Assembly: GCA_947176455.1 (NCBI GenBank)
Contig: CAMWQQ010000013.1
Span: 1-18,625, forward strand
DNA length: 18,625 bases
DNA from: an uncultured Odoribacter sp.
GTDB taxonomy: Bacteria > Bacteroidota > Bacteroidia > Bacteroidales > Marinifilaceae
Direction: 5' to 3'
In this document: piece by piece, positions 1-18,625 of the stretch
Layout: every line of letters begins with the position of its first letter
Numbering within the stretch: position 1 is the stretch's first letter
Translations under genes and position numbers: made by a program
The notes under the pieces: model-generated
Seen by the model: only the letters and a program-made list of their open reading frames with translations
The model's database searches: none
Told to the model about the DNA's origin: nothing

Positions 1-60
1 GTATTGCCGATTGCGCAAGTCGTGTTGGAAAGAAATCCCGCATTAGTACAAAATCCTTGA
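1..60 (+). CDS. 3' end of a SusD/RagB-family outer-membrane lipoprotein gene (partial)
   Basis: Reading frame 1 from the first base gives 19 codons and then TGA at 58-60. The peptide is VLPIAQVVLERNPALVQNP. It matches the characteristic end of SusD/RagB proteins, which typically close with a 'PIPQ..I..NP.L.QNP' pattern. SusD proteins are surface lipoproteins that form the lid of a SusC TonB-dependent transporter and capture glycans or peptides. A susC gene would be expected just upstream, outside the window. The stop codon is only 5 bases before the next start, so this gene and the five that follow are probably one transcript. The call rests on the C-terminal motif and the context alone. Confidence 0.75.
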   Translation, partial: VLPIAQVVLERNPALVQNP

Positions 61-65
61 ACAAA

Positions 66-962
66 ATGATGAATTTAAGCCTAAAAGATATGAAAATAAT
101 CGTATGGAGCTGGTTGATGCTTTTCGTTTTGGTGGTCACCGGCTGTTACAAAGAAAATAGTCCGGAACCGTCACTCGAACCGGAAGCCATATATGGCAAA
201 TACACTTTGCCGCAGGGGAATCACGACTATGACCCGGAGATTTCAGAAATTTATCGAAAATACGGCACACTTTTGCTTTACCGTTTTGAAGACAAGGATT
301 TCTGGTGGGCGGTCAGTAGCGATATTCGGTGGAAATACCAGGAAGGCATCGGGACGGTTGGCGGATACGAGGCGACACCTGCCGATGAGCGTTATGTCGG
401 ACAACAATTAGAACTGATAAAAGGCAAATTCTTGAAGTATTTTCCGGAGAGCTTCTTGAACAAGGCGTTGCCTTTGAAAATGTTGCTGATGAGCGATTTG
501 AATTATGTTCCCAGCCAGGACAATGAGCCGACCGACGAGGACAGGCAGTTTCGGCACGTCTATTGGGGATATGACTACATGGGCGTGAATTGGGGGAATG
601 AAAACATCCTGACGATGACTGCCTCTGAACGGAATGCGTTCAAGTCGGAAATCTGCACCGTCTTTTTAGAGAACTTTTACAAGAAGACAAAAGAGAGCGC
701 AGTGGATTTCTTTGCTGTCAGCAGTTATGCTTCAGGGGCAGGCACTTCGCCGTCAGACGGTTTTGTCGATGCGAGTGCCAATACTCCCGAAAAGGATTGG
801 ATTAGCTTTATCAGGGCAATTGTTTCTACGCCGTATGAGGATATGGTGAACGGGGGCATTTTGACTAATGCAAAGATTCGTCAGAAATATGATATTATGA
901 TCGACTTTTTCAGACAGACATATCAAATCGACCTGCAAGCCATCGGAAACGACGTGGAATAA
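66..962 (+). CDS. SusCD-associated lipoprotein, Mx1 metallopeptidase-like fold with degenerate HExxH
   Basis: This 298-aa protein has a lipoprotein signal: a hydrophobic stretch ending in VVTGC, with lipid-bearing Cys27 counted from ATG 66 (Cys19 if ATG 90 is the true start). Its layout recalls, from memory, the SusCD-linked 'zinc-binding metallopeptidase' lipoproteins (Peptidase_Mx1; substrate import-associated zinc metallohydrolase). It has an N-terminal LLYRFED strand, an ADERYVGQQLELIK helix, a central helix that normally carries HExxH, and a C-terminal NAKIRQKYDIMIDFFRQTYQ segment ending in IDL. The central helix here reads K-S-E-I-C-T (S194-T198), so both zinc-binding histidines are missing. 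A pseudo-enzyme that binds substrate is therefore likely. It lies between susD and a TlpA gene, 18 bases before the latter. The family assignment is inferred from pattern; lipoprotein export is clear. Confidence 0.6.
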   Translation: MMNLSLKDMKIIVWSWLMLFVLVVTGCYKENSPEPSLEPEAIYGKYTLPQGNHDYDPEISEIYRKYGTLLLYRFEDKDFWWAVSSDIRWKYQEGIGTVGGYEATPADERYVGQQLELIKGKFLKYFPESFLNKALPLKMLLMSDLNYVPSQDNEPTDEDRQFRHVYWGYDYMGVNWGNENILTMTASERNAFKSEICTVFLENFYKKTKESAVDFFAVSSYASGAGTSPSDGFVDASANTPEKDWISFIRAIVSTPYEDMVNGGILTNAKIRQKYDIMIDFFRQTYQIDLQAIGNDVE

Positions 963-980
963 AAGAAAAACAACAGACGC

Positions 981-2069
981 ATGAAAAAGATATGGGTTTT
1001 AAGCATTCTCGTGTGGGTGAACGGTATCGGTTTTGCGCAATCGCACTCGAATATCGGACAATTCTGGGAGGAATTTGTGCCCGGAGGGAATCAGGTGGTG
1101 AAAGAGGTGCTCCGGAACAGGGACAGTCTTGCCAGACTCCTGAAAGGGAACAAGCGGGAAATGCAGACGAACCGTATCGAGGCGACAAGATACGTGGCAA
1201 AACGCTTGAAAGCCGGCGAAATCCCGGAAACCAGACCGTCGGACATCAATAAACTGCTGAAGGGCATAGACCTCCGCTCGCCTGAAATCGTACAGGTGGC
1301 GGATTTGGGTGGGTTTGTCGAAAGCTATTTCGGTTTGAAATACATTGCGGCAGGCGCACCGGCGGAGGAAGCCTGGGGAAGTATGTGGTTTAATACGACG
1401 GTGGAAACATTGGGAAACGAGTACGACTACAAGCGTTATCGGGAGATTCTGGAAACGAAGAATCCGGCGTTGATTTCCACCTATCTGGAATGCCTGCGCA
1501 GGGTGTTCCGCTATAACGGCTATACGCAAGGATTGGAAGATATCCGGCCGTTGGTGGAGAAGAATTTCCCGGCAGGTGAGTTGAAAGAGGAGATACTCAG
1601 GCTGTACGAGTCCTATCATCATTTAAAAGAAGGAGCAATTGCTCCTTCTTTTACCCTGAAAGATTTTAAAAATCGGGAGCATTCGCTGTCCGATTATCGG
1701 GGGAAAGTGCTGGTGGTGGATGTCTGGGCGACCTGGTGTGGCGGATGTATCTTGAAATTGCCGGAATTTCTGAAGTTGAGAGAGGCTTACAAGGAGCGTG
1801 AAGATATCGAGTTTATCACGATTTCCATAGATAAGGCTGAAAGTTTCAATACCTGGAAGTATGCTTTGCCACGCCTGAAATTGTTGGGAGTGACCAATCT
1901 GCTGGCACCGGACGGCAAATGTTCTTTCGGGGCGGACTATCGTATCACCGGCATTCCCCGTTATTTCCTTTTTGACAAACAGGGGAAAATCGTATCGGTA
2001 TATGCGCCGACGCCTGGAGAGGATTTGAAGCGACTTATTGACAGGACATTGATGAAGAGTAACAAATGA
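981..2069 (+). CDS. Exported TlpA-like thiol-disulfide oxidoreductase
   Basis: This 362-aa protein starts with a Sec signal peptide (residues 1-20, ending GIGFAQ). About 190 residues of unassigned, mostly helical sequence follow, then a thioredoxin/AhpC-TSA-type domain from about residue 212 to the end. The domain shows the APSFTL entry motif, the redox motif W-C-G-G-C (Cys253 and Cys256) and the cis-proline in GIPRY (Pro326). TlpA proteins act in the periplasm, or facing it, and reduce or reshuffle disulfides in exported proteins. The neighbouring exported proteases contain several cysteines, so they are plausible clients (inference). The gene lies 9 bases before the S8 protease gene. The N-terminal domain does not look like the DUF4369 common in Bacteroides TlpA proteins. 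A 30-bp perfect palindrome falls at the junction of the two domains (see 1624-1653). Confidence 0.85.
   Translation: MKKIWVLSILVWVNGIGFAQSHSNIGQFWEEFVPGGNQVVKEVLRNRDSLARLLKGNKREMQTNRIEATRYVAKRLKAGEIPETRPSDINKLLKGIDLRSPEIVQVADLGGFVESYFGLKYIAAGAPAEEAWGSMWFNTTVETLGNEYDYKRYREILETKNPALISTYLECLRRVFRYNGYTQGLEDIRPLVEKNFPAGELKEEILRLYESYHHLKEGAIAPSFTLKDFKNREHSLSDYRGKVLVVDVWATWCGGCILKLPEFLKLREAYKEREDIEFITISIDKAESFNTWKYALPRLKLLGVTNLLAPDGKCSFGADYRITGIPRYFLFDKQGKIVSVYAPTPGEDLKRLIDRTLMKSNK
1624..1653. repeat. 30-bp perfect palindrome inside the TlpA-like gene
   Basis: Arms 1624-1638 and 1639-1653 are exact reverse complements. The left arm is TAAAAGAAGGAGCAA and the centre is CAATTG. On RNA it could form a hairpin of about 13 bp with a minimal loop, flanked by A and U runs, so it resembles a bidirectional terminator, though AT-rich at the base. 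It encodes the linker residues around KEGAIAPSF, where the N-terminal region meets the thioredoxin domain. No function is demonstrated; the symmetry itself is read directly from the sequence. Confidence 0.9.
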
Positions 2070-2078
2070 CACGATGAT

Positions 2079-3725
2079 ATGAAGACGATTTTAATGGGAA
2101 TCTTGTTTTGCCTTTGGTTTAGCCTGCAAGGCAAAGCCCAGTTGATGAACGAGGAGCGACAGACCGTTTATCCGTTGAATTGGCATACTTTGTCGTTCGA
2201 CCGGGATTCGGTGTACGGTATGGAACTGGACAAGGCTTATGAGTTTCTGAAAGGGAAAGAAAAGAAGCAGAAGGTGATTGTCGCCGTCATTGACGGAGGG
2301 TTTGACGAACAACACGAAGATTTGAAGGAGGTGTTGTGGCGCAACAGAGGAGAGATTCCCGACAATGGGACGGACGATGACAAGAACGGATATGCGGACG
2401 ATTTGCACGGTTGGAATTTTTTGGTGACCAAGGACGGTAAACCGGTGACCCGGACAATGCAGGACGGAGCCATTTTGTTTTTGCGACACCGGGAACGTTA
2501 TGATGCCTTGTCGGCTAAAAAACGCAATGCCAAAGAAGAAAAGGAGTATCAGGAACTGAAAAAGTTGCTGGGAAAGTCGGAGTTGGGCGTAAAGTATCTT
2601 TCGATAGAATTGGCGTTGGCGTTCCGGAAGTATGTCGAGGAATACGACCGGGAAATGAAGGTCCGTTTCCCCGGAGAAACGCTGGGACACGAACATTTCA
2701 ATGCGGTATTGGATACGAAAAATGAGACGGATACCTTGAAGTTGGCGACTCATATGTTTTACAATATTATGTGGGATATGCAACCGGAGAGCAGTTGGGA
2801 CAAGATGTTTGCCGGAAGGCTGGCATCCGAGCAGGTTGCCCGGGAGCAATATGAGGAGCTTTTGGCGAAGCAGACGGACGAAAGGAAACAGGTGGGCGAT
2901 GATATGGAGAATCTGAAAGACCGGGCATACGGCAGTCCGGTACTGCTCAATGAAACGTCCGAACACGGCACTCATATCGCCGGCATTATCGGGGCACAAC
3001 GGGGCAACGAAATCGGTATGGACGGTGTTGCCGACAATGTGGAACTGATGCTGATAGGAGCCATTCCGAACGGAGATGAAAATGACAAGGACGTGGCGTT
3101 GGCTATCCGCTATGCGGTGGACAACGGTGCGAAGGTCATCAATATGAGTTTTGGCAAGCGGGTTTCCATTCATCCGGAATGGGTGGTTGAAGCGATGCAG
3201 TATGCGGAGAAAAAAGGCGTATTGTTGGTGCTGGCGGCTGGAAATGCCCACCAGGATATAGATAATGATTCGTTTTATCCCACCCGCCATATTTCTTCGA
3301 AAAAGTCTATCGGAACTTTTCTGAGGGTCGGAGCTTCCGATCCCGAAGGGAATCCGGCGGTTTCATCGAATTACGGGAAAACGGAGGTGGATGTGTTCGC
3401 TCCGGGCGTGGATATTTATTCAACCGTGACGGGAGACAATTACCGGAAAATGGACGGATCCAGTATGGCGTGTCCTATGGTTTCCGGTGTTGTTGCCTTG
3501 CTGATGACGTATTATCCCGAACTGAGTGCCACTGAAATAAAGGATATCATTATCCAAACCGCTGTCACTCGGAAAGGATGCCGGATACAGATGCCTCAAA
3601 GTCCAAGTATGGTGGTTGCCCGCAAACTGGCAGACTTTTCGGATGTATGCGTGGCAGGCGGTATCGTGAACGCTTATGAAGCGGTGAAATTGGCGGAAAG
3701 TATGGTGAATGCGAAGAAGAAATAA
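2079..3725 (+). CDS. Exported S8 (subtilisin-type) serine protease
   Basis: This 548-aa protein has a signal peptide (about residues 1-20, MKTILMGILFCLWFSLQGKA). The S8 catalytic triad is complete: Asp72 in AVIDGGFD, His296 in SEHGTHIAGI and Ser462 in DGSSMACPMVSG. The oxyanion asparagine is Asn389 in LAAGNA. Asp72 and His296 are 224 residues apart, far more than the roughly 30 in subtilisin. The insertion begins with an acidic DNGTDDDKNGYADD stretch (95-108) that resembles a calcium-binding loop and continues as a charged, helical region; long insertions of this type are known in Bacteroidota S8 proteases. No separate propeptide or C-terminal sorting domain is evident, so the enzyme probably acts in the periplasm or outer membrane. 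It is the third intact gene of the operon and should be active. Confidence 0.92.
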   Translation: MKTILMGILFCLWFSLQGKAQLMNEERQTVYPLNWHTLSFDRDSVYGMELDKAYEFLKGKEKKQKVIVAVIDGGFDEQHEDLKEVLWRNRGEIPDNGTDDDKNGYADDLHGWNFLVTKDGKPVTRTMQDGAILFLRHRERYDALSAKKRNAKEEKEYQELKKLLGKSELGVKYLSIELALAFRKYVEEYDREMKVRFPGETLGHEHFNAVLDTKNETDTLKLATHMFYNIMWDMQPESSWDKMFAGRLASEQVAREQYEELLAKQTDERKQVGDDMENLKDRAYGSPVLLNETSEHGTHIAGIIGAQRGNEIGMDGVADNVELMLIGAIPNGDENDKDVALAIRYAVDNGAKVINMSFGKRVSIHPEWVVEAMQYAEKKGVLLVLAAGNAHQDIDNDSFYPTRHISSKKSIGTFLRVGASDPEGNPAVSSNYGKTEVDVFAPGVDIYSTVTGDNYRKMDGSSMACPMVSGVVALLMTYYPELSATEIKDIIIQTAVTRKGCRIQMPQSPSMVVARKLADFSDVCVAGGIVNAYEAVKLAESMVNAKKK

Positions 3726-3739
3726 CGGAAAATAAGGTT

Positions 3740-4354
3740 ATGGATATGGGAAAACTACTTTTGATTTGGCTCGTCATTGGTTTGTCGGGATATGTTCAAG
3801 CCGAAAATTTGGACGGTAGTTCGGGACTTCTGCCTTGGGGACAACCGGATTCCGTTGAAATCATTGATTTGTTGAATGATTGGAATCGTCAGCAACTTAC
3901 GGCAGAGGAACAAAAGCAGTGGACGGAAAAAATTGAAGGAGATATCCGGCAGGCACTTTTCCTGTATTGTTTGCAGGATAGCGTGACGGGACAGCCGGAT
4001 TTTTCCGAAATCCATACTCTTGTCGGTAATTCCGGCATACCTGTTTGTGCGATGATAAAACATACCTTGGAATTGACCGGCTTTTCTCAGAAAAAGGATT
4101 TGCAGGGGGCTATGGAGGCGGTTGGACATATCGCCAGGGCGGATTTGTCGGGTGCGACTATGCAGGATTGGTTTGTCCTTGGAAAAGGATTGAACTTTAT
4201 TCTGACGGAAGCCGATTTGTCCCAAAGCAAGGCGATGCTCCGGCTATTGGATGACTTGTTAGAGAAAGAGGAGAGACAGGAATGGCTGACCCTGAAGAAA
4301 ATCCGGGATAACTTTGAAGGGAAGATGATGCTTATTGAAATGGGAGAGGAATAA
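3740..4354 (+). CDS. Exported protein of unknown function, operon partner of the proteases
   Basis: I do not recognise this 204-aa protein. It opens with a likely signal peptide (KLLLIWLVIGLSGYVQA, cleavage near residue 21); ATG 3746 is an equally possible start. The rest looks mainly helical and acidic, with no transmembrane segment after the signal. Two cysteines remain in the mature part (in FLYCLQD and PVCAMIK). It starts 14 bases after the S8 protease stop and ends 4 bases before the aspartic protease start. That spacing makes it very likely a functional partner, for example an inhibitor, chaperone or adaptor of the proteases. No motif shows which. Confidence 0.75.
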   Translation: MDMGKLLLIWLVIGLSGYVQAENLDGSSGLLPWGQPDSVEIIDLLNDWNRQQLTAEEQKQWTEKIEGDIRQALFLYCLQDSVTGQPDFSEIHTLVGNSGIPVCAMIKHTLELTGFSQKKDLQGAMEAVGHIARADLSGATMQDWFVLGKGLNFILTEADLSQSKAMLRLLDDLLEKEERQEWLTLKKIRDNFEGKMMLIEMGEE

Positions 4355-4358
4355 TCGG

Positions 4359-5516
4359 ATGATGAACGGATTTAAAATAAAGTATGTTTTTTTCCTGTTC
4401 TGCTTATGTATGGGAAGCGCAAACGCTTTTTCGCAGGCGACCGGATATTACGAGGAAATCCCTTTTGAGTGGGAACGCAACAAGATTATCGTTCAGGTGA
4501 CGGTAGAGGGCGTGAAAGGACGTTATATCTTTGATACGGGAGCTTCTATGTGCATCACTCATTCCCGAATGGAGAAGTGCGGGGACAAACATTTTTCCGA
4601 ACAGACCGTTACCGATGCCCACGGCAAGGAGGCAAGTTTTCGAGAGGTGGTTATGGAGTCGGTGAAATTGGGTTCGGTCGATTTCCGGAATGTCCCTGCC
4701 TTGGTGCTCGGAAAGGGGCATTTGCTGGAATGCTACGGGGTGGACGGCATTATCGGAAGTTCGCTGTTCCCTGCATCGGTCATTCGCATAGATGTTGCCC
4801 GTAAGATACTGACATTGACTGACGGTACGGCAAGACTTGGGTTAAATCCGCGAACGGTGATGCCGTTGATGCTTGATCGACAGAACATCCCTTATATCGT
4901 ATTGAATTTGGGAGAGGGGCAGGAGGAAAAAGTGATGTTCGATACGGGAGCTCCGGCGTTTTATGAAATGAATGAACCGACCTACCAGGCGTTGAAATCC
5001 CGAACGCTGATGAAAACGACAAGCACCGGATTCGGTATCTTGGGAATGGGTATCGGCGGTCTGGAAAAGGCAATGGTGAAATACCGCTTGGAATTGGCGG
5101 AAGTCCGGATAGGAATGGGAAAATTCAAGCGAGTGACCGTTGAAACGATGAATGGTCCGGGGTCGCGCATAGGAGCCGGTTTGCTGGAATATGGAGTGGT
5201 TACTCTGGATTACCCGGGGAATAAGTTTTATTTTGAACCGTTTAATGCCACTCCGGTTGATTTGTCGCGGAAAGAGTGGAATGTCGCCATAACCGTTTCC
5301 GGTGACAGTCTGGTCATCGGGTGCGTTTGGGAAAGTATGCGGGATGAATTGAAAAGTGGCGAAAGGGTAGTTGCCGTCAACGGTCAAAGAGTGGGAAGCA
5401 TAGACCCTTGCACTGCCTTGACTTCTTCCGTCATAAAAATGGAAGGCGAGGAAGCGACAATCTCCGTGGTGGATGAACAAGGTATGGAAAAAGAGGTGGT
5501 TATCAGGAAGGAGTAA
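4359..5516 (+). CDS. Exported retropepsin-like aspartic protease with C-terminal PDZ domain
   Basis: This 385-aa protein has a signal peptide (about residues 1-26, FFLFCLCMGSANAFSQA). Two retropepsin-like lobes each carry a catalytic D-T-G-A motif: Asp59 in IFDTGAS and Asp195 in MFDTGAP. Hydrophobic-Gly segments follow each lobe (GVDGIIGSSLF and GSRIGAGLLEYG). Both halves of a pepsin-like active site therefore lie in one chain. The last 80 or so residues, including SGERVVAVNGQRVG, look like a PDZ domain, which usually binds C-terminal peptides of substrates. Five cysteines in the mature part are possible TlpA clients. ATG 4359 was chosen because an extension upstream would need a TTG codon inside the preceding gene; ATG 4362 is also possible. 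The gene ends the operon, and its stop is only 2 bases from the stop of the opposing GrpB-family gene. Confidence 0.88.
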   Translation: MMNGFKIKYVFFLFCLCMGSANAFSQATGYYEEIPFEWERNKIIVQVTVEGVKGRYIFDTGASMCITHSRMEKCGDKHFSEQTVTDAHGKEASFREVVMESVKLGSVDFRNVPALVLGKGHLLECYGVDGIIGSSLFPASVIRIDVARKILTLTDGTARLGLNPRTVMPLMLDRQNIPYIVLNLGEGQEEKVMFDTGAPAFYEMNEPTYQALKSRTLMKTTSTGFGILGMGIGGLEKAMVKYRLELAEVRIGMGKFKRVTVETMNGPGSRIGAGLLEYGVVTLDYPGNKFYFEPFNATPVDLSRKEWNVAITVSGDSLVIGCVWESMRDELKSGERVVAVNGQRVGSIDPCTALTSSVIKMEGEEATISVVDEQGMEKEVVIRKE

Positions 5517-7453: not shown

Positions 7454-8407
7454 TTAAAGTTTTTCTATGTCGCTTGCGTCAAGCCCCGTTGTCGAAACAA
7501 TGACATCCAATGGAAGCCCGAGACCTTTCATTTTATGGGCTATTTGCAATCGTTCTTCAATCTTTCCTTCCGCTATCCCTTCCAGCCTGCCTTCAGCTCT
7601 ACCTTCAGCTATCCCTTCGGCCCTGCCTTCTATTCTTCCCTCTGCTCTTCCTTCAAGCCTTCCTTCTGCTTTGCCCTCTATCCAGCCCGTTTCTATCACA
7701 CTTTTTTGATAACGAATCGCCTCCAGTTCTCTGTAATAGGCTTGTTTTTCATCCGAACTCAAGGCATCGACTTTTAGTCGTTCCCGGGCTTCCGGTAAGC
7801 CTTTTGCCGTAGCGTTTTTATCTATCTGACCTGTTTTCAGAAATTGAATCCACTCATCCAAAGGCGTGTTGGCTATCTGGTCGAACTCGTTGACCCGAAG
7901 CACATAATATTCCGGGAAAAGGTCACCGGCCTCTTTGCCCACGAACAATTCCCGCTGTTGGACAGACAAATGCAAAATATCCTCCGGATTGTGCAATCCC
8001 CGGAAAAAAGTTTTCCCGTGGTACACGTAATCTTTCCCTTGTCCCAAATCGAAATAAACGATATTAATGGAATACACTTTCCGTATCTTGCTATATGCGT
8101 CCCCTAGACCGATGTACTCTGAAATCGTTTTGGACACCCCGTATAACATCCGGTGAAAATAATCCAATTCCCTGTTGTTCTGCACTTCGATAATTAGCAG
8201 TTCCCCGTTCGTATTTTCAACCAGGATATCTGCCCGGTTGAACTTATCCAGCGCGTCCGTCTGATTTGACTCGCTTTCAAGGAACTTGCAGATACGAATA
8301 TCCTCCTCCAAAAGAGTGGATAAAAACCCTTCCAAGACCACGTAATTGCTCTTGTCCCGAAGCAACCGTTTCATTGCCCAATCGAAGTGGATTAAATTCG
8401 TGCCCAT
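7454..8407 (-). CDS. Rpn-family PD-(D/E)XK nuclease (putative transposase family) with EGxx repeat tail
   Basis: This 317-aa protein starts with HFDWAMKRLLRDK, close to the 'DxxFKxlF' opening of Rpn/PDDEXK_2 proteins. The nuclease core follows: Asp60 in NRADILVEN and Glu74-x-Gln76 in LLIIEVQNN, then the FHRMLYGVSK helix. E. coli Rpn proteins are DNA endonucleases that promote recombination, and some act in phage defence. The C-terminal part has a charged helix and then ten tetrapeptide repeats of E-G-x-x, closed by EERLQIAHKMKGLG and a short DVIVSTTGLDASDIEKL segment. ATG 8407 was chosen because the longer frame needs a TTG that overlaps the promoter. It has a good promoter of its own and is followed after 32 bases by pgk. 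The ends of a transposon are not visible. Confidence 0.88.
   Translation of the reverse strand: MGTNLIHFDWAMKRLLRDKSNYVVLEGFLSTLLEEDIRICKFLESESNQTDALDKFNRADILVENTNGELLIIEVQNNRELDYFHRMLYGVSKTISEYIGLGDAYSKIRKVYSINIVYFDLGQGKDYVYHGKTFFRGLHNPEDILHLSVQQRELFVGKEAGDLFPEYYVLRVNEFDQIANTPLDEWIQFLKTGQIDKNATAKGLPEARERLKVDALSSDEKQAYYRELEAIRYQKSVIETGWIEGKAEGRLEGRAEGRIEGRAEGIAEGRAEGRLEGIAEGKIEERLQIAHKMKGLGLPLDVIVSTTGLDASDIEKL
7559..7678 (-). repeat. Ten 12-bp tandem repeats encoding (EGxx)10
   Basis: The stretch is exactly 120 bases, ten in-frame 12-base units in the 3' part of the Rpn gene. Each unit encodes Glu-Gly followed by two of K/R/I and A/L/I. The units are degenerate at the DNA level (GAA/GAG, GGC/GGA/GGG) but keep a strong purine-rich pattern on the coding strand. 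Gain or loss of units would leave the frame intact, so the tail length could vary between strains. Confidence 0.92.
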
Positions 8408-8431
8408 AACATTTGGTGTCGGATTACTCAA

Positions 8432-8463
8432 CAAAGATATGAATAAGTGAGGGCAAAAACAAA
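8432..8463 (-). promoter_or_regulatory. Bacteroidales-type promoter for the Rpn nuclease gene
   Basis: On the - strand TTTG (8463-8460) is followed after 20 bases by TATCTTTG (8439-8432), which matches TAnnTTTG fully. Transcription would start near 8428, leaving a leader of about 20 bases before ATG 8407. Confidence 0.65.
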
Positions 8464-12813: not shown

Positions 12814-14148
12814 ATGAGACCAGAAATAAAAGAATTCATGGATGCCTTAAAGGCAAAAACAGTGGGTGAAGTTGAATTTCACCAGGCTGTAGAAGAAGTT
12901 ATTGAGACCGTATGGGATACCTATCAGGCAAATCCGAAATACAAGGCCAATAAGATTCTTGAAAAAATGGTAGAACCTGAAAGAGTCATTATGTTCCGGG
13001 TTCCGTGGATTGATGACAAAGGCGAAGTGCAAATCAACCGCGGTTACCGTGTACAATTCAATAGTGCTATCGGACCGTACAAAGGCGGTTTGCGTTTCCA
13101 CCCGTCCGTAACGCTTGGCGGTTTGAAATTCTTGGGTTTCGAGCAGACTTTCAAGAACTCTCTGACTACGTTGCCTATGGGTGGCGGTAAGGGAGGTTCA
13201 GACTTCAACCCGAAAGGCAAATCAGACAATGAAGTGATGCGTTTCTGCCAGAGCTTTATGACTGAGCTTTGCAAGCACATCGGACCGGATACTGACGTTC
13301 CTGCCGGTGATATCGGCGTTGGCGGACGTGAAATCGGTTATCTGTTCGGACAATACAAGAGAATTCGCAATGAGTTCGTAGGCGTATTGACTGGAAAGAA
13401 CCGGGAATTCGGAGGTTCGCGCGTGCGTCCGGAAGCTACCGGTTACGGTACGGTTTACTTCGCACAGCATATGCTGAAAGAAAAAGGCCAGGACATCAAG
13501 GGCAAGACGGTTGCTATCTCCGGATTCGGTAACGTTGCTTGGGGTGCTGCACAGAAACTCGTTCAGCTGGGTGCCAAACTGGTAACCATTTCAGGACCGG
13601 ACGGATATATCTATGACGAAAAGGGTATTACCCAGGAAGGTGTAGACTATATGCTCGAACTGCGTGCTAGCAACAACGACGTTGTTGAACCGTATGCAAA
13701 GAAATTCGGTGCTAAGTTCTTCGCCAAGAAAAAGCCGTGGGAGGTTAAGTGCGACATCGCATTCCCGTGTGCTATCCAGAATGAATTGAACGAGGACGAT
13801 GCAAAACAATTGGTTGCCAACGGTTGCCAAATGGTTGTTGAAACTTCCAATATGGGATGTACGGCAGAAGCTGTTCGCTATCTGAACTCTCACATTTCTT
13901 TTGCTCCGGGTAAGGCTGCCAATGCCGGTGGTGTTGCCGTATCGGGTCTGGAAATGAGCCAGAACTCTATGCGTTACAGTTGGACGGCTGAAGAAGTTGA
14001 CCAGAAGTTGTCTCAGATTATGAAAGACATCCACGACACTTGCGTTAAGTTCGGTAAGGAAGGCAACAAGATTGACTACGTGAAGGGTGCCAACATCGGT
14101 GGCTTTATCAAAGTGGCTGAGGCTATGTGTGCTCAAGGACACGTGTAA
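12814..14148 (+). CDS. gdhA: Glutamate dehydrogenase, hexameric NADP-type
   Basis: This 444-aa enzyme makes glutamate from 2-oxoglutarate and ammonia, the main nitrogen entry route in many gut Bacteroidales. Substrate residues are Lys90 (GPYKGGLRFHPSV) and catalytic Lys126 in PMGGGKGGSDF, with Asp166 in VPAGDIGVGGREIG. The nucleotide fold shows SGFGNVAWGAA (236-246) and then TISGPDGYIYDEKG, where cofactor choice is set; length and sequence fit the NADP-linked GDH class, but use of NADH cannot be ruled out from sequence. It has its own promoter and terminator and so is a single-gene unit. By eye its codon choice favours C-ending codons (TTC, AAC) more than its neighbours, as expected for high expression. 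Confidence 0.95.
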   Translation: MRPEIKEFMDALKAKTVGEVEFHQAVEEVIETVWDTYQANPKYKANKILEKMVEPERVIMFRVPWIDDKGEVQINRGYRVQFNSAIGPYKGGLRFHPSVTLGGLKFLGFEQTFKNSLTTLPMGGGKGGSDFNPKGKSDNEVMRFCQSFMTELCKHIGPDTDVPAGDIGVGGREIGYLFGQYKRIRNEFVGVLTGKNREFGGSRVRPEATGYGTVYFAQHMLKEKGQDIKGKTVAISGFGNVAWGAAQKLVQLGAKLVTISGPDGYIYDEKGITQEGVDYMLELRASNNDVVEPYAKKFGAKFFAKKKPWEVKCDIAFPCAIQNELNEDDAKQLVANGCQMVVETSNMGCTAEAVRYLNSHISFAPGKAANAGGVAVSGLEMSQNSMRYSWTAEEVDQKLSQIMKDIHDTCVKFGKEGNKIDYVKGANIGGFIKVAEAMCAQGHV

Positions 14149-14178
14149 TTGAGCATAAACTTTTGCTTACATAACGAA

Positions 14179-14216
14179 AACCGGCGGACTTTTACAGTCT
14201 GCCGGTTCTTTTTTTT
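14179..14216 (+). terminator. Rho-independent terminator of gdhA
   Basis: AACCGGCGGACT (14179-14190) pairs with AGTCTGCCGGTT (14196-14207), 12 bp with one G-U pair, around a 5-base loop. A run of eight T follows (14209-14216). It begins 30 bases after the gdhA stop. On the other strand the hairpin ends in only four T but could also serve the convergent thioredoxin-family gene. Confidence 0.92.
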
Positions 14217-14218
14217 CG

Positions 14219-15397
14219 TCATTTATTTTTTCCTCTCTTCGGTTTCTCTTTCAGTAAGGGATGTCGTAGGTCATACACTTGTTTCCCGTATGCAGGGGTT
14301 TCAAGCAAATTTGCCGGAATTGGTTTGCCTTCCTGAATGGAACGTTGAATCAGGTATTCCAGGGCATTGGCATAATTGTAATGCGTATAGGCATCGTCCC
14401 GGTTGTACATATTGTAAGCGACATACCTTGCATATCGGATTTTTTTAACCAATTCGTCGAAACTCAAATCCTGGTCCGTGTATTTCGGATGGATTCGGGT
14501 GTAAAAAGAGAGTTGTTTTATGAATTTGTGCTGGTCAATGGTGGTGTCGGCAATCAGCTGGTCCACGTATTTCCAGGCTTTATCGTGTTTCTTTTGCTGG
14601 AATAACCGGGACATATGCGCCATTTTCAGATTGTAATCCTTACCTTCGAAATCGACCAGGCTGTCCATGAAAGTTTTCGGAGCATACGCCGTTGCTGTGG
14701 TGAGTTTTTCATCAACAGCCTTTTTGCCGAATAGCCGGACAAATTCGTCGTAATGGTCGGAGATCTGTTTCAGATACGGATTGTCATAACCGTTTACGCA
14801 TTCCACATACAGATTCCAGATTTCGGGGTCGGAGAGTTTGCCTCCCATCTCAATCAATTTGTCGAAATCCTTTAGGATATTGCGATTGCCTGAAACTTTC
14901 TGGCTACGGATATAGTCTATCAGAAAATCACGGTCGTATTTTCCGCTTTTGTATTTTTCCGTCAGGTAAATGGAACTCAGTTTCGGGTTGAGCGCCCCTT
15001 TGGCATCCGCAATGAAGTCGGTTGCCGGCTTATTGCCACCGCTACGGTGTATCATCTCCTGCGTTTTCGGGTCGATGAAGATATAGGACGGATAGGAATG
15101 GATGTCGTACTTTTTTGCCAATACCCGTCCTTCGCCCTTCTCCGCATCGATTTTCAAACAGATGAAGTTCTTGTTGTACACGTCGCCCACTTCCGGCAAC
15201 GGAAAGACCGTCAGTGCCATATTCAAGCAGGGACCGCACCATTCGGTAAAGAAATCGACGAAGACCTTTTTCTTTTCTTTCTTTGCCAATGCCATTGCCT
15301 CCTCCCACGTCCCGTGGAAAAAGCGGATTCCGCTTTCCTGTGCGGTGGCAGGAAGCAGAATCGCTATGAATGATAAAATGAATAAGCCTTTTTTCAT
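14219..15397 (-). CDS. Exported thioredoxin-fold protein with long helical C-terminal region
   Basis: This 392-aa protein has a Sec signal peptide (about 1-19, ILSFIAILLPATAQ). A thioredoxin-like domain spans about residues 25-140, with the redox motif E-W-C-G-P-C (Cys54, Cys57) and a cis-proline (Pro103 in HSYPSYIF). The FFHGTWEEAMALAKKEKKKVFVDF entry resembles the Thioredoxin_7/DsbD-gamma-like group that acts on periplasmic or outer-membrane proteins. The remaining 250 or so residues are helical, with no clear repeat family, and end in a basic tail (KEKPKRGKNK). It lies 76 bases downstream of topB on the same strand, so it could be read from topB or from a promoter in that gap; none is convincing. 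Confidence 0.88.
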   Translation of the reverse strand: MKKGLFILSFIAILLPATAQESGIRFFHGTWEEAMALAKKEKKKVFVDFFTEWCGPCLNMALTVFPLPEVGDVYNKNFICLKIDAEKGEGRVLAKKYDIHSYPSYIFIDPKTQEMIHRSGGNKPATDFIADAKGALNPKLSSIYLTEKYKSGKYDRDFLIDYIRSQKVSGNRNILKDFDKLIEMGGKLSDPEIWNLYVECVNGYDNPYLKQISDHYDEFVRLFGKKAVDEKLTTATAYAPKTFMDSLVDFEGKDYNLKMAHMSRLFQQKKHDKAWKYVDQLIADTTIDQHKFIKQLSFYTRIHPKYTDQDLSFDELVKKIRYARYVAYNMYNRDDAYTHYNYANALEYLIQRSIQEGKPIPANLLETPAYGKQVYDLRHPLLKEKPKRGKNK

Positions 15398-15473
15398 CGT
15401 ATTTCGTTTTTATTTGTTGGAGCATTTTTTGCAATCTACCAATCAATAAACGGAATAACGAATGAAAAGTTTT

Positions 15474-17573
15474 TTAGATTTTCTCAATGTCCAGAAGTTT
15501 ATTTTCATTCAGGATGATGATTCCGTTGAAGGTGTCGCCTTCAGCTGTTTTGAATCCTGATATTTTTCCGGTCTTTCCTTTTTGCACAAGCGTTTCGATT
15601 TGTTTCGGGGTCAGTTTTTTGCCTTGTATTTCCATAGGAATCAGGAAGTCGCACGATTTCCGGTACAGCGTGCACCCCCAGGCTGTTTTCCCTTTCACGA
15701 CCTTGCCTTGTCCGCACTTCGGACAGAGCAGAATTACCGGTTCTTTTTCCTTTTTGACCGGCTTGTCTTCTTCTTTTTTCTTTTCCTTCTCGTTTTCTTC
15801 CACGTGAATGGTTTTGGCGGAGGAGTGGCGGACGAAATGGACGATTTCGTTTACCATAACTTTCAATTCCTCCATAAAGTCCGTCACCTGATAGGTGCCG
15901 TCTTCAATCATCCGGAGCTTCTTTTCCCATTGTCCGGTTAGTTCTGCGGATTTCAACAGGTCGTTTTGAATTGTGTCTATCAGTTCGATGCCGGTGGATG
16001 TTGCCAGCAACCGTTTCTTGTCTTTGCGGATGTATTGTCGCTTATACAGGGTTTCGATGATGTTGGCGCGAGTGGAGGGGCGACCGATGCCGTTTTCTTT
16101 CATCAGGTCCCGCAGTTCTTCGTCTTCCACTTGCTTTCCGGCGGTTTCCATAGCCCTTAGTAAATCAGCTTCCGTATAATATTTCGGTGGTTGGGTCTGC
16201 TTTTCCTGCAATTCGGGGGTGTGCGGTCCGTGTTCTCCTTGTTCGTAGGCGGGTAGCACGTTCTCTTCGTTTTGCTTGTCCGTATTGTTGCCGAAAACGA
16301 CTCGCCAGGCGGGGTCGATGATTTGTTTTCCGGTTGCCTTGAACTCTTCATCGCCGATTTTAGCCATAACCGTGGTGTTGGCAACTTCGCAGTCGGGGTA
16401 GAATACGGCGATAAACCGCCGGGCAACCAGGTCGTAGACCCTTTTTTCGTCCGGTGACAGGTCGTAGCTAAATACGCCTGTCGGGATAATGGCGTGGTGG
16501 TCGGTGATTTTTTTGTCGTTGAACACCTTGGGGGATTTGCGAATCTTTCCTCCTTCCAGTATCGGTTTGGTCAACGCTTCATAAGGTTTCAAGCCTTTCA
16601 GGATATTGGGCACCTTGGCATACTGGTCGTTGGGTAAGAAACTCGTATCCACGCGGGGATAGGTAGTCAGTTTTTTCTCGTATAGCGTCTGAATGATTTT
16701 CAGGGTATTTTCTGCCGTGAAAGCGTATTTGCGGTTGCATTCTACTTGTAGGGAGGTCAGGTCGAACAGCTTGGGGGGATGTTCCATTGCTTTTTTCCGT
16801 TCGACGCTGAGGATTTCCAGTTCCAAGGGAGTGATTTTCTCCACAATGGCTTCCGCTTCCTCTTTTTTATTGAACCGTCCGCGCTGGCAGGAAAAGATGC
16901 CGTCCCGGTAATTGGTCCGGATTTCCCAATAGGTCTCCGGTTTAAAGTTCTCGATTGCTTTTTGCCGTTCTACCACCAGGGCGAGTGTCGGGGTTTGCAC
17001 CCTGCCGATAGACAATACATTCTTTCCGGTGCCGTATTTCAGGGTATATGCCCGGGTGGCGTTCATACCTAACAGCCAGTCACCGATAGCCCGGGCGGAA
17101 CCGGCCGCATACAGCGAGTCGAAATCCTTGCCGTCCATAAGCTTTTCAAATCCTTCCCGGATAGCCTCTTCTGTCAGGGAGGAAATCCAGAGGCGTTTGA
17201 CGGGTATGCCACATTTGGCTTTGGTGAGCACCCACCGTTGTATCAGTTCCCCTTCTTGCCCGGCATCCCCGCAGTTGATGACCATTTCCGCCTTGGCAAC
17301 CAGGTTTTCGATGACGGCAAACTGTTTTTTGATGCCCTCGTCTTCTATCAGCCGGATGCGGAATTTGGAGGGAATCATCGGCAATACCCCCATATTCCAT
17401 TTTTGCCATTTCTCCGTATATTCTCCGGGTTCCTGCAAAGTGCACAGATGACCGAACGTCCAGGTCACGCAATATCCGTTTCCCTCCAGATAGCCGTCTC
17501 TCCGGGCGGTGGCGCCCAGAATGGTGGCGATTTCTTTGGCAACGCTCGGTTTTTCGGCAATACACATTTTCAT
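15474..17573 (-). CDS. topB: DNA topoisomerase III (type IA)
   Basis: This 699-aa enzyme cuts and passes single DNA strands, separating linked daughter chromosomes and recombination intermediates. The Toprim domain has IAEKPSVAKEIA near the start and the acidic motif D-A-G-Q-E-G-E (Asp103-Glu109). The active-site tyrosine is Tyr305 in TTYPRVDTS. GRPSTRANIIETL and the decatenation-type core follow. A Lys/Glu-rich linker (about 588-612) leads to a zinc-ribbon with Cys617, Cys620, Cys634 and Cys641, and a short terminal domain. ATG 17573 is preferred over the upstream GTG 17582; ATG 17567 is also possible. Its length and Toprim motif resemble topB genes of Bacteroides conjugative elements (Exc of CTnDOT), yet no mobile-element gene is beside it. 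Confidence 0.95.
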   Translation of the reverse strand: MKMCIAEKPSVAKEIATILGATARRDGYLEGNGYCVTWTFGHLCTLQEPGEYTEKWQKWNMGVLPMIPSKFRIRLIEDEGIKKQFAVIENLVAKAEMVINCGDAGQEGELIQRWVLTKAKCGIPVKRLWISSLTEEAIREGFEKLMDGKDFDSLYAAGSARAIGDWLLGMNATRAYTLKYGTGKNVLSIGRVQTPTLALVVERQKAIENFKPETYWEIRTNYRDGIFSCQRGRFNKKEEAEAIVEKITPLELEILSVERKKAMEHPPKLFDLTSLQVECNRKYAFTAENTLKIIQTLYEKKLTTYPRVDTSFLPNDQYAKVPNILKGLKPYEALTKPILEGGKIRKSPKVFNDKKITDHHAIIPTGVFSYDLSPDEKRVYDLVARRFIAVFYPDCEVANTTVMAKIGDEEFKATGKQIIDPAWRVVFGNNTDKQNEENVLPAYEQGEHGPHTPELQEKQTQPPKYYTEADLLRAMETAGKQVEDEELRDLMKENGIGRPSTRANIIETLYKRQYIRKDKKRLLATSTGIELIDTIQNDLLKSAELTGQWEKKLRMIEDGTYQVTDFMEELKVMVNEIVHFVRHSSAKTIHVEENEKEKKKEEDKPVKKEKEPVILLCPKCGQGKVVKGKTAWGCTLYRKSCDFLIPMEIQGKKLTPKQIETLVQKGKTGKISGFKTAEGDTFNGIIILNENKLLDIEKI

Positions 17574-17599
17574 AATCCGCACGACTGAATAATCACCTG

Positions 17600-17607
17600 C
17601 GAAGATA
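17600..17607 (-). promoter_or_regulatory. Candidate -7 element for topB
   Basis: TATCTTCG on the - strand has one mismatch to TAnnTTTG and lies 26 bases before ATG 17573. No clear TTTG stands at the right distance upstream, so this is tentative. Confidence 0.35.
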
Positions 17608-17710
17608 CGAATTAAAAATGAAACTAAGGAGTTTGTCCGTCTGCCGTCCGGTTTTGCCTTTCTGTGGAAATGTTTCGGGGATTGGGAGGTGAAATAAACG
17701 GGGATAACTA

Positions 17711-17741
17711 TTTGTTCTTTGGCTTTTTATCTTTATATTTG
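17711..17741 (+). promoter_or_regulatory. Bacteroidales-type promoter for the second Rpn nuclease gene
   Basis: TTTG (17711-17714) precedes TATATTTG (17734-17741) by exactly 19 bases, a full consensus match. The leader to ATG 17840 would be about 95 bases, longer than the others here, with no uORF or strong hairpin noticed. The 266-base gap 17574-17839 otherwise holds only the topB upstream region. Confidence 0.7.
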
Positions 17742-17839
17742 CATAAAAGGTTGCACTTGCGTGCGATTCCCGGATGTATAAACGGTGTTCGGCTGTGCTG
17801 TTTCTGTTGCGTGGCTGACGGCAAATAAGAGAAACGATT

Positions 17840-18625
17840 ATGAGATACCTTAACCCCAAAGCGGACCTGACTTTCAAGCGTGTTTTCGGAGAACATCCGG
17901 ATTTGGTGATGAGTCTGCTGAATGCCTTGTTGCCGTTGGAAGCCGACCGGAAAATCACGGAAATCGAGTACCTGCCCTCGGAAATGGTGCCCGAGAATCC
18001 GTTGCGCAAGAACAGCATCGTGGATGTGCGGTGCAAGGATGCGCAAGGACGGCATTTCCTGGTGGAGATGCAGATGCTGTGGTCGCCCGAATTCAAACAG
18101 CGCGTGTTGTTCAACGCCTCCAAGGCGTATGTCCGACAACTGGACGCCGGCAACTACTATCACTTGCTCCAGCCGGTGTATTCGCTCAATTTGGTCAACG
18201 AGGTCTTTGAACCCGAACTGGAGGGCTTTTACCACCATTACCGACTGGTGCACGTGGAGAATTCCGACCGGATTATCGACGGTCTTCAACTGGTGTTCGT
18301 GGAACTGCCCAAGTTTGTCGCCCACACCTACGGCGAAAAGAAGATGCAGGTGCTGTGGTTGCGCTATCTGACGGAAATCGACGAGCGTACGCGCGAAGTG
18401 CCGGTCGAATTAATGGAAAACCCGGACATCCGGAAAGCCGTGTCCATTTTGGAGGAGTCCGCCTTTACTCCGGCACAGTTGCAGGGATACGAGGATTTCT
18501 GGGACGGGGTGAGTGTGGAAAGGACGATGTGGCTCGACGCAAAAATGGAAGGGTATCGAACTGGACATCAAGAAGGACACCAGGCAGGGCATCAGGAAGG
18601 TCGCCGAGAAGGATACCGGGAAGGT
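17840..18625 (+). CDS. Rpn-family PD-(D/E)XK nuclease (putative transposase family), 3' end beyond window
   Basis: An open frame of 262 codons runs from ATG 17840 to the last base with no stop. It opens with RYLNPKADLTFKRVFGEHPD, the standard start of Rpn/PDDEXK_2 proteins in Bacteroidales. The nuclease core has Asp62 in SIVDVRCKD and Glu76-x-Gln78 in FLVEMQM, the same 14-residue spacing as in the gene at 7454-8407. The middle (VYSLNLVNEVF, HYRLVHVEN, VFVELPKF) fits the family. The tail is a G-x-x-E/A/T repeat that is still running at the window edge. The GC content is somewhat higher by eye (33 of 60 bases at 18061-18120). It is divergent from topB. Confidence 0.9.
   Translation, partial: MRYLNPKADLTFKRVFGEHPDLVMSLLNALLPLEADRKITEIEYLPSEMVPENPLRKNSIVDVRCKDAQGRHFLVEMQMLWSPEFKQRVLFNASKAYVRQLDAGNYYHLLQPVYSLNLVNEVFEPELEGFYHHYRLVHVENSDRIIDGLQLVFVELPKFVAHTYGEKKMQVLWLRYLTEIDERTREVPVELMENPDIRKAVSILEESAFTPAQLQGYEDFWDGVSVERTMWLDAKMEGYRTGHQEGHQAGHQEGRREGYREG
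18551..18625 (+). repeat. 12-bp tandem repeats encoding a G-x-x-E-like tail (continues past window)
   Basis: Six full in-frame 12-base units and the first codon of a seventh encode GYRT, GHQE, GHQA, GHQE, GRRE, GYRE and G. The period matches the tail of the other Rpn gene at 7559-7678, but the residues differ (His/Gln/Tyr instead of Ala/Leu/Ile). Confidence 0.85.

What the first reader, a model, noticed from the sequence alone, without database searches (positions are those of the whole stretch)
1..5516. SusCD-linked operon carrying two proteases of different classes, a TlpA partner, a pseudo-metallopeptidase and an unknown exported protein
Gaps of 4-18 bases link susD, an Mx1-like lipoprotein, a TlpA-like thioredoxin, an S8 protease with intact triad, an exported 204-aa protein and a double-DTG aspartic protease with PDZ. 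SusCD loci usually pair with glycan enzymes; RagAB of Porphyromonas shows that SusCD-type systems can import peptides. Here the cargo handling looks entirely proteolytic, with serine and aspartic proteases made together. I infer a peptide- or protein-capture system in which the lipoprotein binds, the proteases cut and TlpA keeps cysteine-containing parts folded. An alternative is processing of a self-made exported peptide.
Basis: partly seen in the sequence, partly recalled or inferred. Interest (0 to 1): 0.75.

Follow-up and report, generated by a model that had tools for sequence, protein, structure and literature searches.

The report
Peptide-import operon with dead-protease relatives
This stretch is one version of a recurring gut-bacterial operon that probably brings protein fragments into the cell; in the 24 related copies examined the big serine protease and the surface metalloprotease have lost their cutting residues, while in this copy the serine protease looks alive.

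Summary
In detail: susD 3' end, metallopeptidase-like lipoprotein, TlpA-type thioredoxin, S8 protease with intact triad, 204-aa exported protein and double-DTG aspartic protease form one tight + strand unit. The contig starts at window base 1, so susC is not seen here; in 23 of 24 related loci (12 other genomes, three families) SusC, SusD and the lipoprotein precede the S8 gene, and FecR lies upstream in 19. Of S8 genes outside such loci, 18 of 18 with wide context are intact; one with narrow context (L222) is not. A third protein, an aspartic-protease fold fused to thioredoxin, reads DLxG/DTW instead of DTG. Six dead S8 pairs show dN/dS 0.055-0.173, like intact pairs. The 204-aa protein is a helical module of thioredoxin proteins and pairs with this TlpA type in 8 of 8 loci. 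Best reading, inferred: import of peptides or glycopeptides, thiol reduction, peptide holding by inactive protease folds, and cleavage. No transport was shown.

The parts
1..60 (+). 3' end of a susD gene (19 codons and stop; rest off the contig)
   Evidence: frame 1 reads ...LERNPALVQNP*; SusD of L192 and L200 ends LDKNPALVQNP; contig starts at base 1
66..962 (+). lipoprotein with metallopeptidase (Mx1/TIGR04549-like) fold but no HExxH; start may be base 90; probably surface-exposed
981..2069 (+). TlpA-type thioredoxin with an N-terminal part of about 200 residues, WCGGC
2079..3725 (+). S8 (subtilase) protease, D72/H296/N389/S462 intact, signal-peptide-like start
   Evidence: the 8 nearest database relatives listed (P0133-P0140) are intact too
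3740..4354 (+). 204-aa all-helical protein with signal-peptide-like start; related to the segment after thioredoxin domains in proteins of L118-L121; ends FEGKMMLIEMGEE
4359..5516 (+). clan AA aspartic protease with two DTG motifs (D59, D195) and a weak PDZ-like C-terminus

Best explanation
The window holds a reduced member of a Bacteroidales SusCD cassette for uptake of peptides or small (glyco)proteins. Inferred working: SusC, which in a relative carries an STN signalling domain, senses bound cargo and signals through FecR to an ECF sigma factor (gene order and domains seen in relatives; the scheme is the known FecIR one, recalled). A lipoprotein with a dead metallopeptidase fold and SusD capture cargo and SusC imports it. 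In the periplasm TlpA-type thioredoxins, helped by the 204-aa helical module, reduce disulfides, and the double-DTG aspartic protease cuts. In the relatives the S8 protein and an aspartic-protease/thioredoxin fusion have lost catalytic motifs and are proposed to hold peptides; in the window's lineage an intact S8 occupies that place, so cargo is cut by two protease classes. Shown here: gene set, conservation, loss of motifs, purifying selection. Inferred: cargo, binding role, place of each step.
For: 24 relatives' loci in 12 genomes: lipoprotein 24/24, SusC and SusD 23/24, thioredoxin next to the lipoprotein 20/24, aspartic protease with two or more DTG/DSG 21/24, Asp-thioredoxin fusion 21/24 (L206 and L129 break off at contig ends). 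FecR upstream in 19, ECF too in 12. STN domain in the SusC of L007, FecR and ECF domains at L005. S8 has lost three or four of D, H, N, S in 23 complete loci and D and H in partial L206; Asn replaced by Glu or Asp in 23 of 23, Asp by Gly in 20 of 23. dN/dS 0.055-0.173 for six dead pairs; three intact pairs 0.072-0.125. DLxG or DVAG in 118/118 and DTW in 119/119 readable fusions of 120 listed. One 966-aa protein in G069 fuses dead S8, altered Asp fold and thioredoxin. 204-aa and this TlpA type (over 300 bits) co-occur in 8 of 8 loci. L007 and L196, nearest in layout to the window, are followed by GH85 endo-beta-N-acetylglucosaminidase genes, which fits N-glycoprotein cargo. The SusC of L007 matches the peptide importer RagA (2.6e-62; function from PMC11817032, passages).
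Against: No expression, binding or transport data. SusC is not on the contig. RagA is barely ahead of another SusC homologue (8aa4, 1.1e-61) and far behind 8ypu (6e-106), whose cargo I do not know, so kinship hardly speaks for peptide. GH85 is absent from the window and was not found in its 68%-complete genome. L125 has no SusCD beside it. L222 shows an S8 with lost residues without cassette genes in its short stretch. Glycan loci can also carry proteases (recalled).
Confidence: 0.47

Rival explanations
1. Glycan or glycopeptide utilisation locus in which proteases and thioredoxins only open the protein scaffold; glycans are the imported cargo.
For: SusCD systems commonly import glycans (PMC7782687, passages); GH85 follows the cassette in L007 and L196; SusC of L007 is about as near to 8aa4 as to RagA.
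Against: Every gene of the window operon and the genes matched by our profiles in the 24 cassettes are of other kinds; GH85 not found in the window's genome, 68% complete. I made no general search for glycosidases.
Confidence: 0.22
2. Regulatory or envelope-quality-control unit: proteases and thioredoxins act on the cell's own envelope proteins or on FecR, and SusCD is a sensor rather than a nutrient importer.
For: FecR/ECF genes upstream; in L212 and L213 an intact S8 gene lies between ECF and FecR genes.
Against: Up to four cassettes per genome, as with nutrient systems; SusC and SusD are kept in 23 of 24, although split into two frames in L005 (SusC) and L126 (SusD).
Confidence: 0.13
3. Processing of a self-made exported peptide.
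For: Proteases and thioredoxins occur in peptide-maturation loci (recalled); gaps of 127-217 bases exist in L193, L195 and L129.
Against: Largest gap inside the window operon 18 bases, and at most 113 in 20 of 25 loci; the two largest, in L128 and L203, hold other frames. No gene matched by our profiles is an exporter; no separate search was made.
Confidence: 0.05
4. The inactive proteases are decaying genes with no role; only the thioredoxins and aspartic protease matter.
For: Catalytic residues are gone in 24 of 24 relatives.
Against: dN/dS as low as in intact pairs; frames without stops; the same site always replaced by Glu/Asp; fusion with thioredoxin in G069.
Confidence: 0.05

Closest known systems
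RagAB of Porphyromonas gingivalis and Bt2261-64 of B. thetaiotaomicron (SusCD-type peptide importers)
   Same: SusC/SusD pair; SusC of L007 matches RagA at 2.6e-62 and BT_2264 at 1.1e-34; peptide-binding SusCD is established (PMC7782687 and PMC11817032, passages).
   Different: Proteases and thioredoxins are encoded beside SusCD here; the nearest solved pair is 8ypt/8ypu (SusD of L005 7e-40, SusC of L007 6e-106), not RagAB.
TIGR04549 'substrate import-associated zinc metallohydrolase lipoprotein' / Peptidase_Mx1
   Different: Below both curated cut-offs and HExxH absent.
CspC/CspBA-type subtilase pseudoproteases (NF040808, NF040809)
   Same: Subtilase fold without catalytic residues (role in binding recalled; weak match of the L005 S8; the intact window S8 matches as weakly).
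   Different: Different phylum and setting (recalled); scores far below cut-offs.
Utilisomes (SusCD with surface lipoproteins in one complex)
   Same: SusCD with lipoprotein partners (PMC7618045, title, abstract start and term passages).
   Different: Those are described for oligosaccharides; I saw only passages found by peptide and RagAB terms.

Membership tests
SusCD (RagAB-type) outer-membrane import system | SusC TonB-dependent barrel and SusD lipoprotein adjacent | tested here: inconclusive
   susD 3' end in the window, SusC off the contig. In relatives SusC and SusD 23 of 24; SusC of L007 TIGR04056 673.5 bits, cut-off 368.25
SusCD (RagAB-type) outer-membrane import system | cargo is peptide | not testable with these tools
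   no ligand data; kinship to RagA is weak evidence
TIGR04549 zinc metallohydrolase lipoprotein | score above curated cut-off and HExxH | tested here: not met
   19.7 bits against 75; HExxH in 0 of 25 lipoproteins of the 25 loci and 0 of 10 more (L119, L120; eight of L010-L018)
Metallopeptidase fold of 4l7a | overall fold | tested here: met
Peptidase S8, catalytically competent | Asp, His, oxyanion Asn, Ser | tested here: met
   window DHNS; not met in the 24 relatives' cassettes; activity itself not testable here
Clan AA aspartic protease | D[TS]G, here twice in one chain | tested here: met
   D59, D195; Asp_protease_2 4.6e-14
TlpA/ResA thioredoxins | thioredoxin fold with CxxC | tested here: met
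   AhpC-TSA 9.1e-18, WCGGC; NCBIfam cut-offs for ResA and TlpA not reached
Polysaccharide utilisation locus | glycan-active enzymes with SusCD | tested here: not met
   none among the window operon's genes; upstream part missing; GH85 only downstream of L007 and L196

The most novel reading that the evidence does not exclude
A 'dead-protease relay': SusCD cassettes in which inactive metallo-, serine and aspartic protease folds have been turned into peptide-holding proteins that, with thioredoxins, reduce and pass cystine-containing glycoprotein fragments to a live aspartic protease; the window shows a lineage where a live serine protease stands in the place of a dead one.
Probability: 0.3. Interest if true: 0.8.

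Novelty: new variant of a known kind. Interest (0 to 1): 0.58.

Why it matters
SusCD loci are read as glycan systems by default. A cassette with up to four copies per genome in Butyricimonas, joining SusCD to thioredoxins, a live aspartic protease and several inactive protease folds, would be a distinct route for gut bacteria to use proteins or glycoproteins, and would give a natural series (dead and live S8 at the same place) to test what inactive proteases do in nutrient import.

Tried and rejected

Trees: the first left one or two origins of dead S8 open. In the second (55 rows) L007/L196 lie outside the clade of 20 dead ones, but a single clade of all 22 cassette S8 proteins in it is not rejected (p-AU 0.3), so I claim no second loss. 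Left out of the second tree: L129, L207 and the 966-aa fusion; taken: 8 of 28 order loci and 15 of 120 listed proteins. Single-residue deviants of unknown context (P0141, P0163), P0147 (DHDD) and P0165 (GMDG) were counted as 'pseudo' there. The dN/dS script stopped with an error after six dead S8 pairs; the rest was run: intact pairs 0.101, 0.125, 0.072 (YN00), seventh dead pair saturated. Some other genes gave no value. My ORF caller hid genes under longer opposite frames; one search repeats the table without that filter. One search's rule labels L209 a cassette, but its S8 lies upstream of SusC with only thioredoxin-like matches beside it, and I counted it outside. L205 (fusion on a 5.6-kb contig) and L222 (short stretch) are in neither count.

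Literature, judged from titles and abstract starts: SusD+pseudoprotease (0 papers), SusC/TlpA/peptidase/Butyricimonas, 3 of 4 (58, 20 listed), RagAB/SusCD/oligopeptide (10), polysaccharide utilization/peptidase/SusC/thiol-disulfide/Odoribacter, 4 of 5 (7), PDB codes 8YPT, 8YPU, 9URD, 9IY9 (0), zinc metallohydrolase lipoprotein or SusD (1,853, only 12 listed, so no real test), pseudoproteases/Bacteroidetes/peptide binding/SusD, 3 of 4 (1), SusD/thioredoxin/subtilisin/aspartic protease (0). None listed describes this cassette as far as titles and abstract starts show; most subscription papers and all bioRxiv preprints are outside that library. The RagAB and Bt2261-64 original papers are not held.
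Full report
What is there. The window is contig C13 of a 2.04-Mb, 68%-complete genome in 337 contigs. One listed relative each of its 204-aa and S8 proteins is named Odoribacter sp. (60% and 85% identity), so an Odoribacter-type bacterium is likely; this is inference. Bases 1-60 are the end of susD, followed on the same strand by lipoprotein, TlpA-type thioredoxin, S8 protease, 204-aa protein and aspartic protease with gaps of 5, 18, 9, 14 and 4 bases. The next gene, GrpB-like, is convergent.

Relatives. The 204-aa protein is narrow: 11 proteins besides the window's own among 5.8 billion, and matches in 3 of 59 genomes, the own one included. The other two, G016 and G027, have contigs of the lengths of Candidatus Butyricimonas faecavium and B. 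synergistica DSM 23225 contigs, and G064's C2 that of one of Butyricimonas sp. Marseille-P3923. Their loci L005-L007 hold SusC, SusD, lipoprotein, thioredoxins, S8, aspartic proteases and a 204-aa homologue. A profile of 12 S8 proteins matched in 13 of 56 genomes of the family (5 of 17 genera, own included) at E 1e-40 and in 42 of 295 of the order at 1e-100. All 36 genes of the family were read; of the 44 order matches outside the own genome and G007, 30 were read.

The cassette. Over the 24 relatives' loci in which S8 follows SusD or the lipoprotein and has aspartic-protease genes beside it, or breaks off (12 genomes; families f1, f9, f143): lipoprotein 24, SusC and SusD 23, thioredoxin beside the lipoprotein 20, aspartic protease with two or more DTG/DSG 21, Asp-thioredoxin fusion 21, 204-aa homologue 7; FecR upstream in 19, with ECF in 12 of them; in L005, L006 and L196 the stretch starts at SusC, and in L125 and L242 none was found. 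L125 lacks SusCD and has a tyrosine-recombinase gene on its upstream side, which suggests an insertion. A simpler set, SusC-SusD-lipoprotein-thioredoxin without match to our S8 and aspartic-protease profiles, occurs in 8 of the 9 loci L010-L018 (records titled Bacteroidaceae, Mediterranea, Butyricimonas). Nearest in layout to the window are L007 and L196: lipoprotein, this TlpA, 204-aa, two more thioredoxins, S8, one aspartic protease, no fusion; the window lacks the two thioredoxins and has S8 before the 204-aa gene. L007 and L196 continue into a GH85 gene, the window does not.

Dead proteases. Aligned to the window's D72, H296, N389, S462, the S8 protein of 23 complete relatives reads GIEG (5), GTEG (2), GIEP (2), GGEF (2) and once each GMEG, GLEG, VLDG, GIDP, GVEA, GSEA, GVDC, GIDC, GPDF, GSET, DEDR, DEDK: three or four of the four are lost, and Asn always becomes Glu or Asp. 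L206 breaks off at the contig end but has lost D and H. The 18 S8 genes outside such loci with wide context are all DHNS. Against a strict rule: of the 28 order loci, 25 are DHNS, L214 and L215 are the cassettes L242 and L243, and L222 (DQNG) shows no cassette gene in its short stretch. Fisher's test gives 5e-11 for 23 of 24 (the window as the live one) against 0 of 18 (L222 not included), but related sequences are not independent. In the tree 20 dead proteins from three families form one clade (100/100); L007/L196 lie outside it, but one clade of all 22 is not rejected (p-AU 0.3). The window's S8 sits with live P0136, P0137 and P0139 (100/100). It either keeps an older live state or replaced a dead one; I cannot tell which. 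Of the 120 listed relatives of the window's S8, 116 are DHNS, the nearest eight included. Six dead pairs have dN/dS 0.055, 0.079, 0.173, 0.069, 0.070 and 0.117, three intact pairs 0.101, 0.125 and 0.072: the dead ones are as constrained as live ones.

The 204-aa protein. It is all helix (pLDDT 78.6). A profile of 14 members matches the segment after the first and after the second thioredoxin domain of 704-714-aa proteins of L118-L121, loci of three genomes of the same genus and of G020 that also carry an aspartic protease: score 63 and 60, pairwise E 8e-8 and 2e-7; single members 46-58, against at most 34.7 for 117 unrelated frames. It occurs in the same 8 loci as the window's TlpA type (over 300 bits) and directly after it in 7; weaker TlpA relatives (173-247 bits, in L010-L018) have no 204-aa match beside them. 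I read it as a split-off helper of the thioredoxin. It ends E[ML]GEE in 6 of the 8; L007 and L196 end differently.

How it may work. The SusC of L007 has STN, plug and carboxypeptidase-regulatory-like domains, which with FecR and ECF sigma gives the usual ligand-induced circuit (recalled). Its nearest solved relatives are 8ypu/8ypt, then RagA and 8aa4 almost level, so cargo cannot be read from kinship. With thioredoxins and proteases but no recognised glycosidase in the unit, peptides or glycoprotein fragments are the likeliest cargo; GH85 beside two relatives points to N-glycoproteins. That the dead folds bind peptides is my inference.

Verdict. Observation confirmed; interpretation partly supported and changed in its main point. 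A new variant of SusCD systems, interest 0.58.

Noticed in passing
L212:9176-10615 (-) and L213:9092-10552 (-): An intact S8 protease gene lies between the ECF sigma and FecR genes upstream of SusC in two Butyricimonas genomes (G027, G064); it could cut FecR.
   Followed up: partly
L196:13401-15575 and L007:19158-19901: GH85 endo-beta-N-acetylglucosaminidase genes directly downstream of the two cassettes nearest in layout to the window (the L007 one is cut by the end of the stretch).
   Followed up: yes
L205:1537-4437 (-): 966-aa protein fusing dead S8, altered aspartic-protease fold and thioredoxin.
   Followed up: yes
L192 and L200: S8 genes of these two near-identical loci differ far more at silent sites (dS about 0.6) than an aspartic-protease gene and the fusion gene beside them (about 0.06), which suggests exchange by recombination.
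   Followed up: no
L125:4743-5861 (-) and 13611-18043 (+): Cassette without SusCD, with a tyrosine recombinase upstream and an M16 peptidase and an alpha-galactosidase gene downstream.
   Followed up: partly
L203:6789-9325: Two frames without profile match sit between susD and a shortened lipoprotein gene; they look like an inserted mobile element (from the look of the sequence only).
   Followed up: no
L005:3-3033 and L126:5905-7425: SusC of L005 and SusD of L126 are each split into two frames: broken genes or sequencing errors.
   Followed up: no
L222 (G722): S8 protein with DQNG at the four sites, in a short stretch without cassette genes.
   Followed up: no
window 7454-8434 (-) and 17840-18625 (+): Two PF12784 (PD-(D/E)XK family) genes with repeated E-G-R/Q-type tails.
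   Followed up: partly
window 14219-15397 (-): Thioredoxin with a long tail, matching the repeated unit of the double-thioredoxin proteins of L118-L121 (hhalign E 1e-24).
   Followed up: partly
L119, L120: Related SusCD loci carry a FISUMP-domain lipoprotein and a double-thioredoxin protein next to an aspartic protease.
   Followed up: partly
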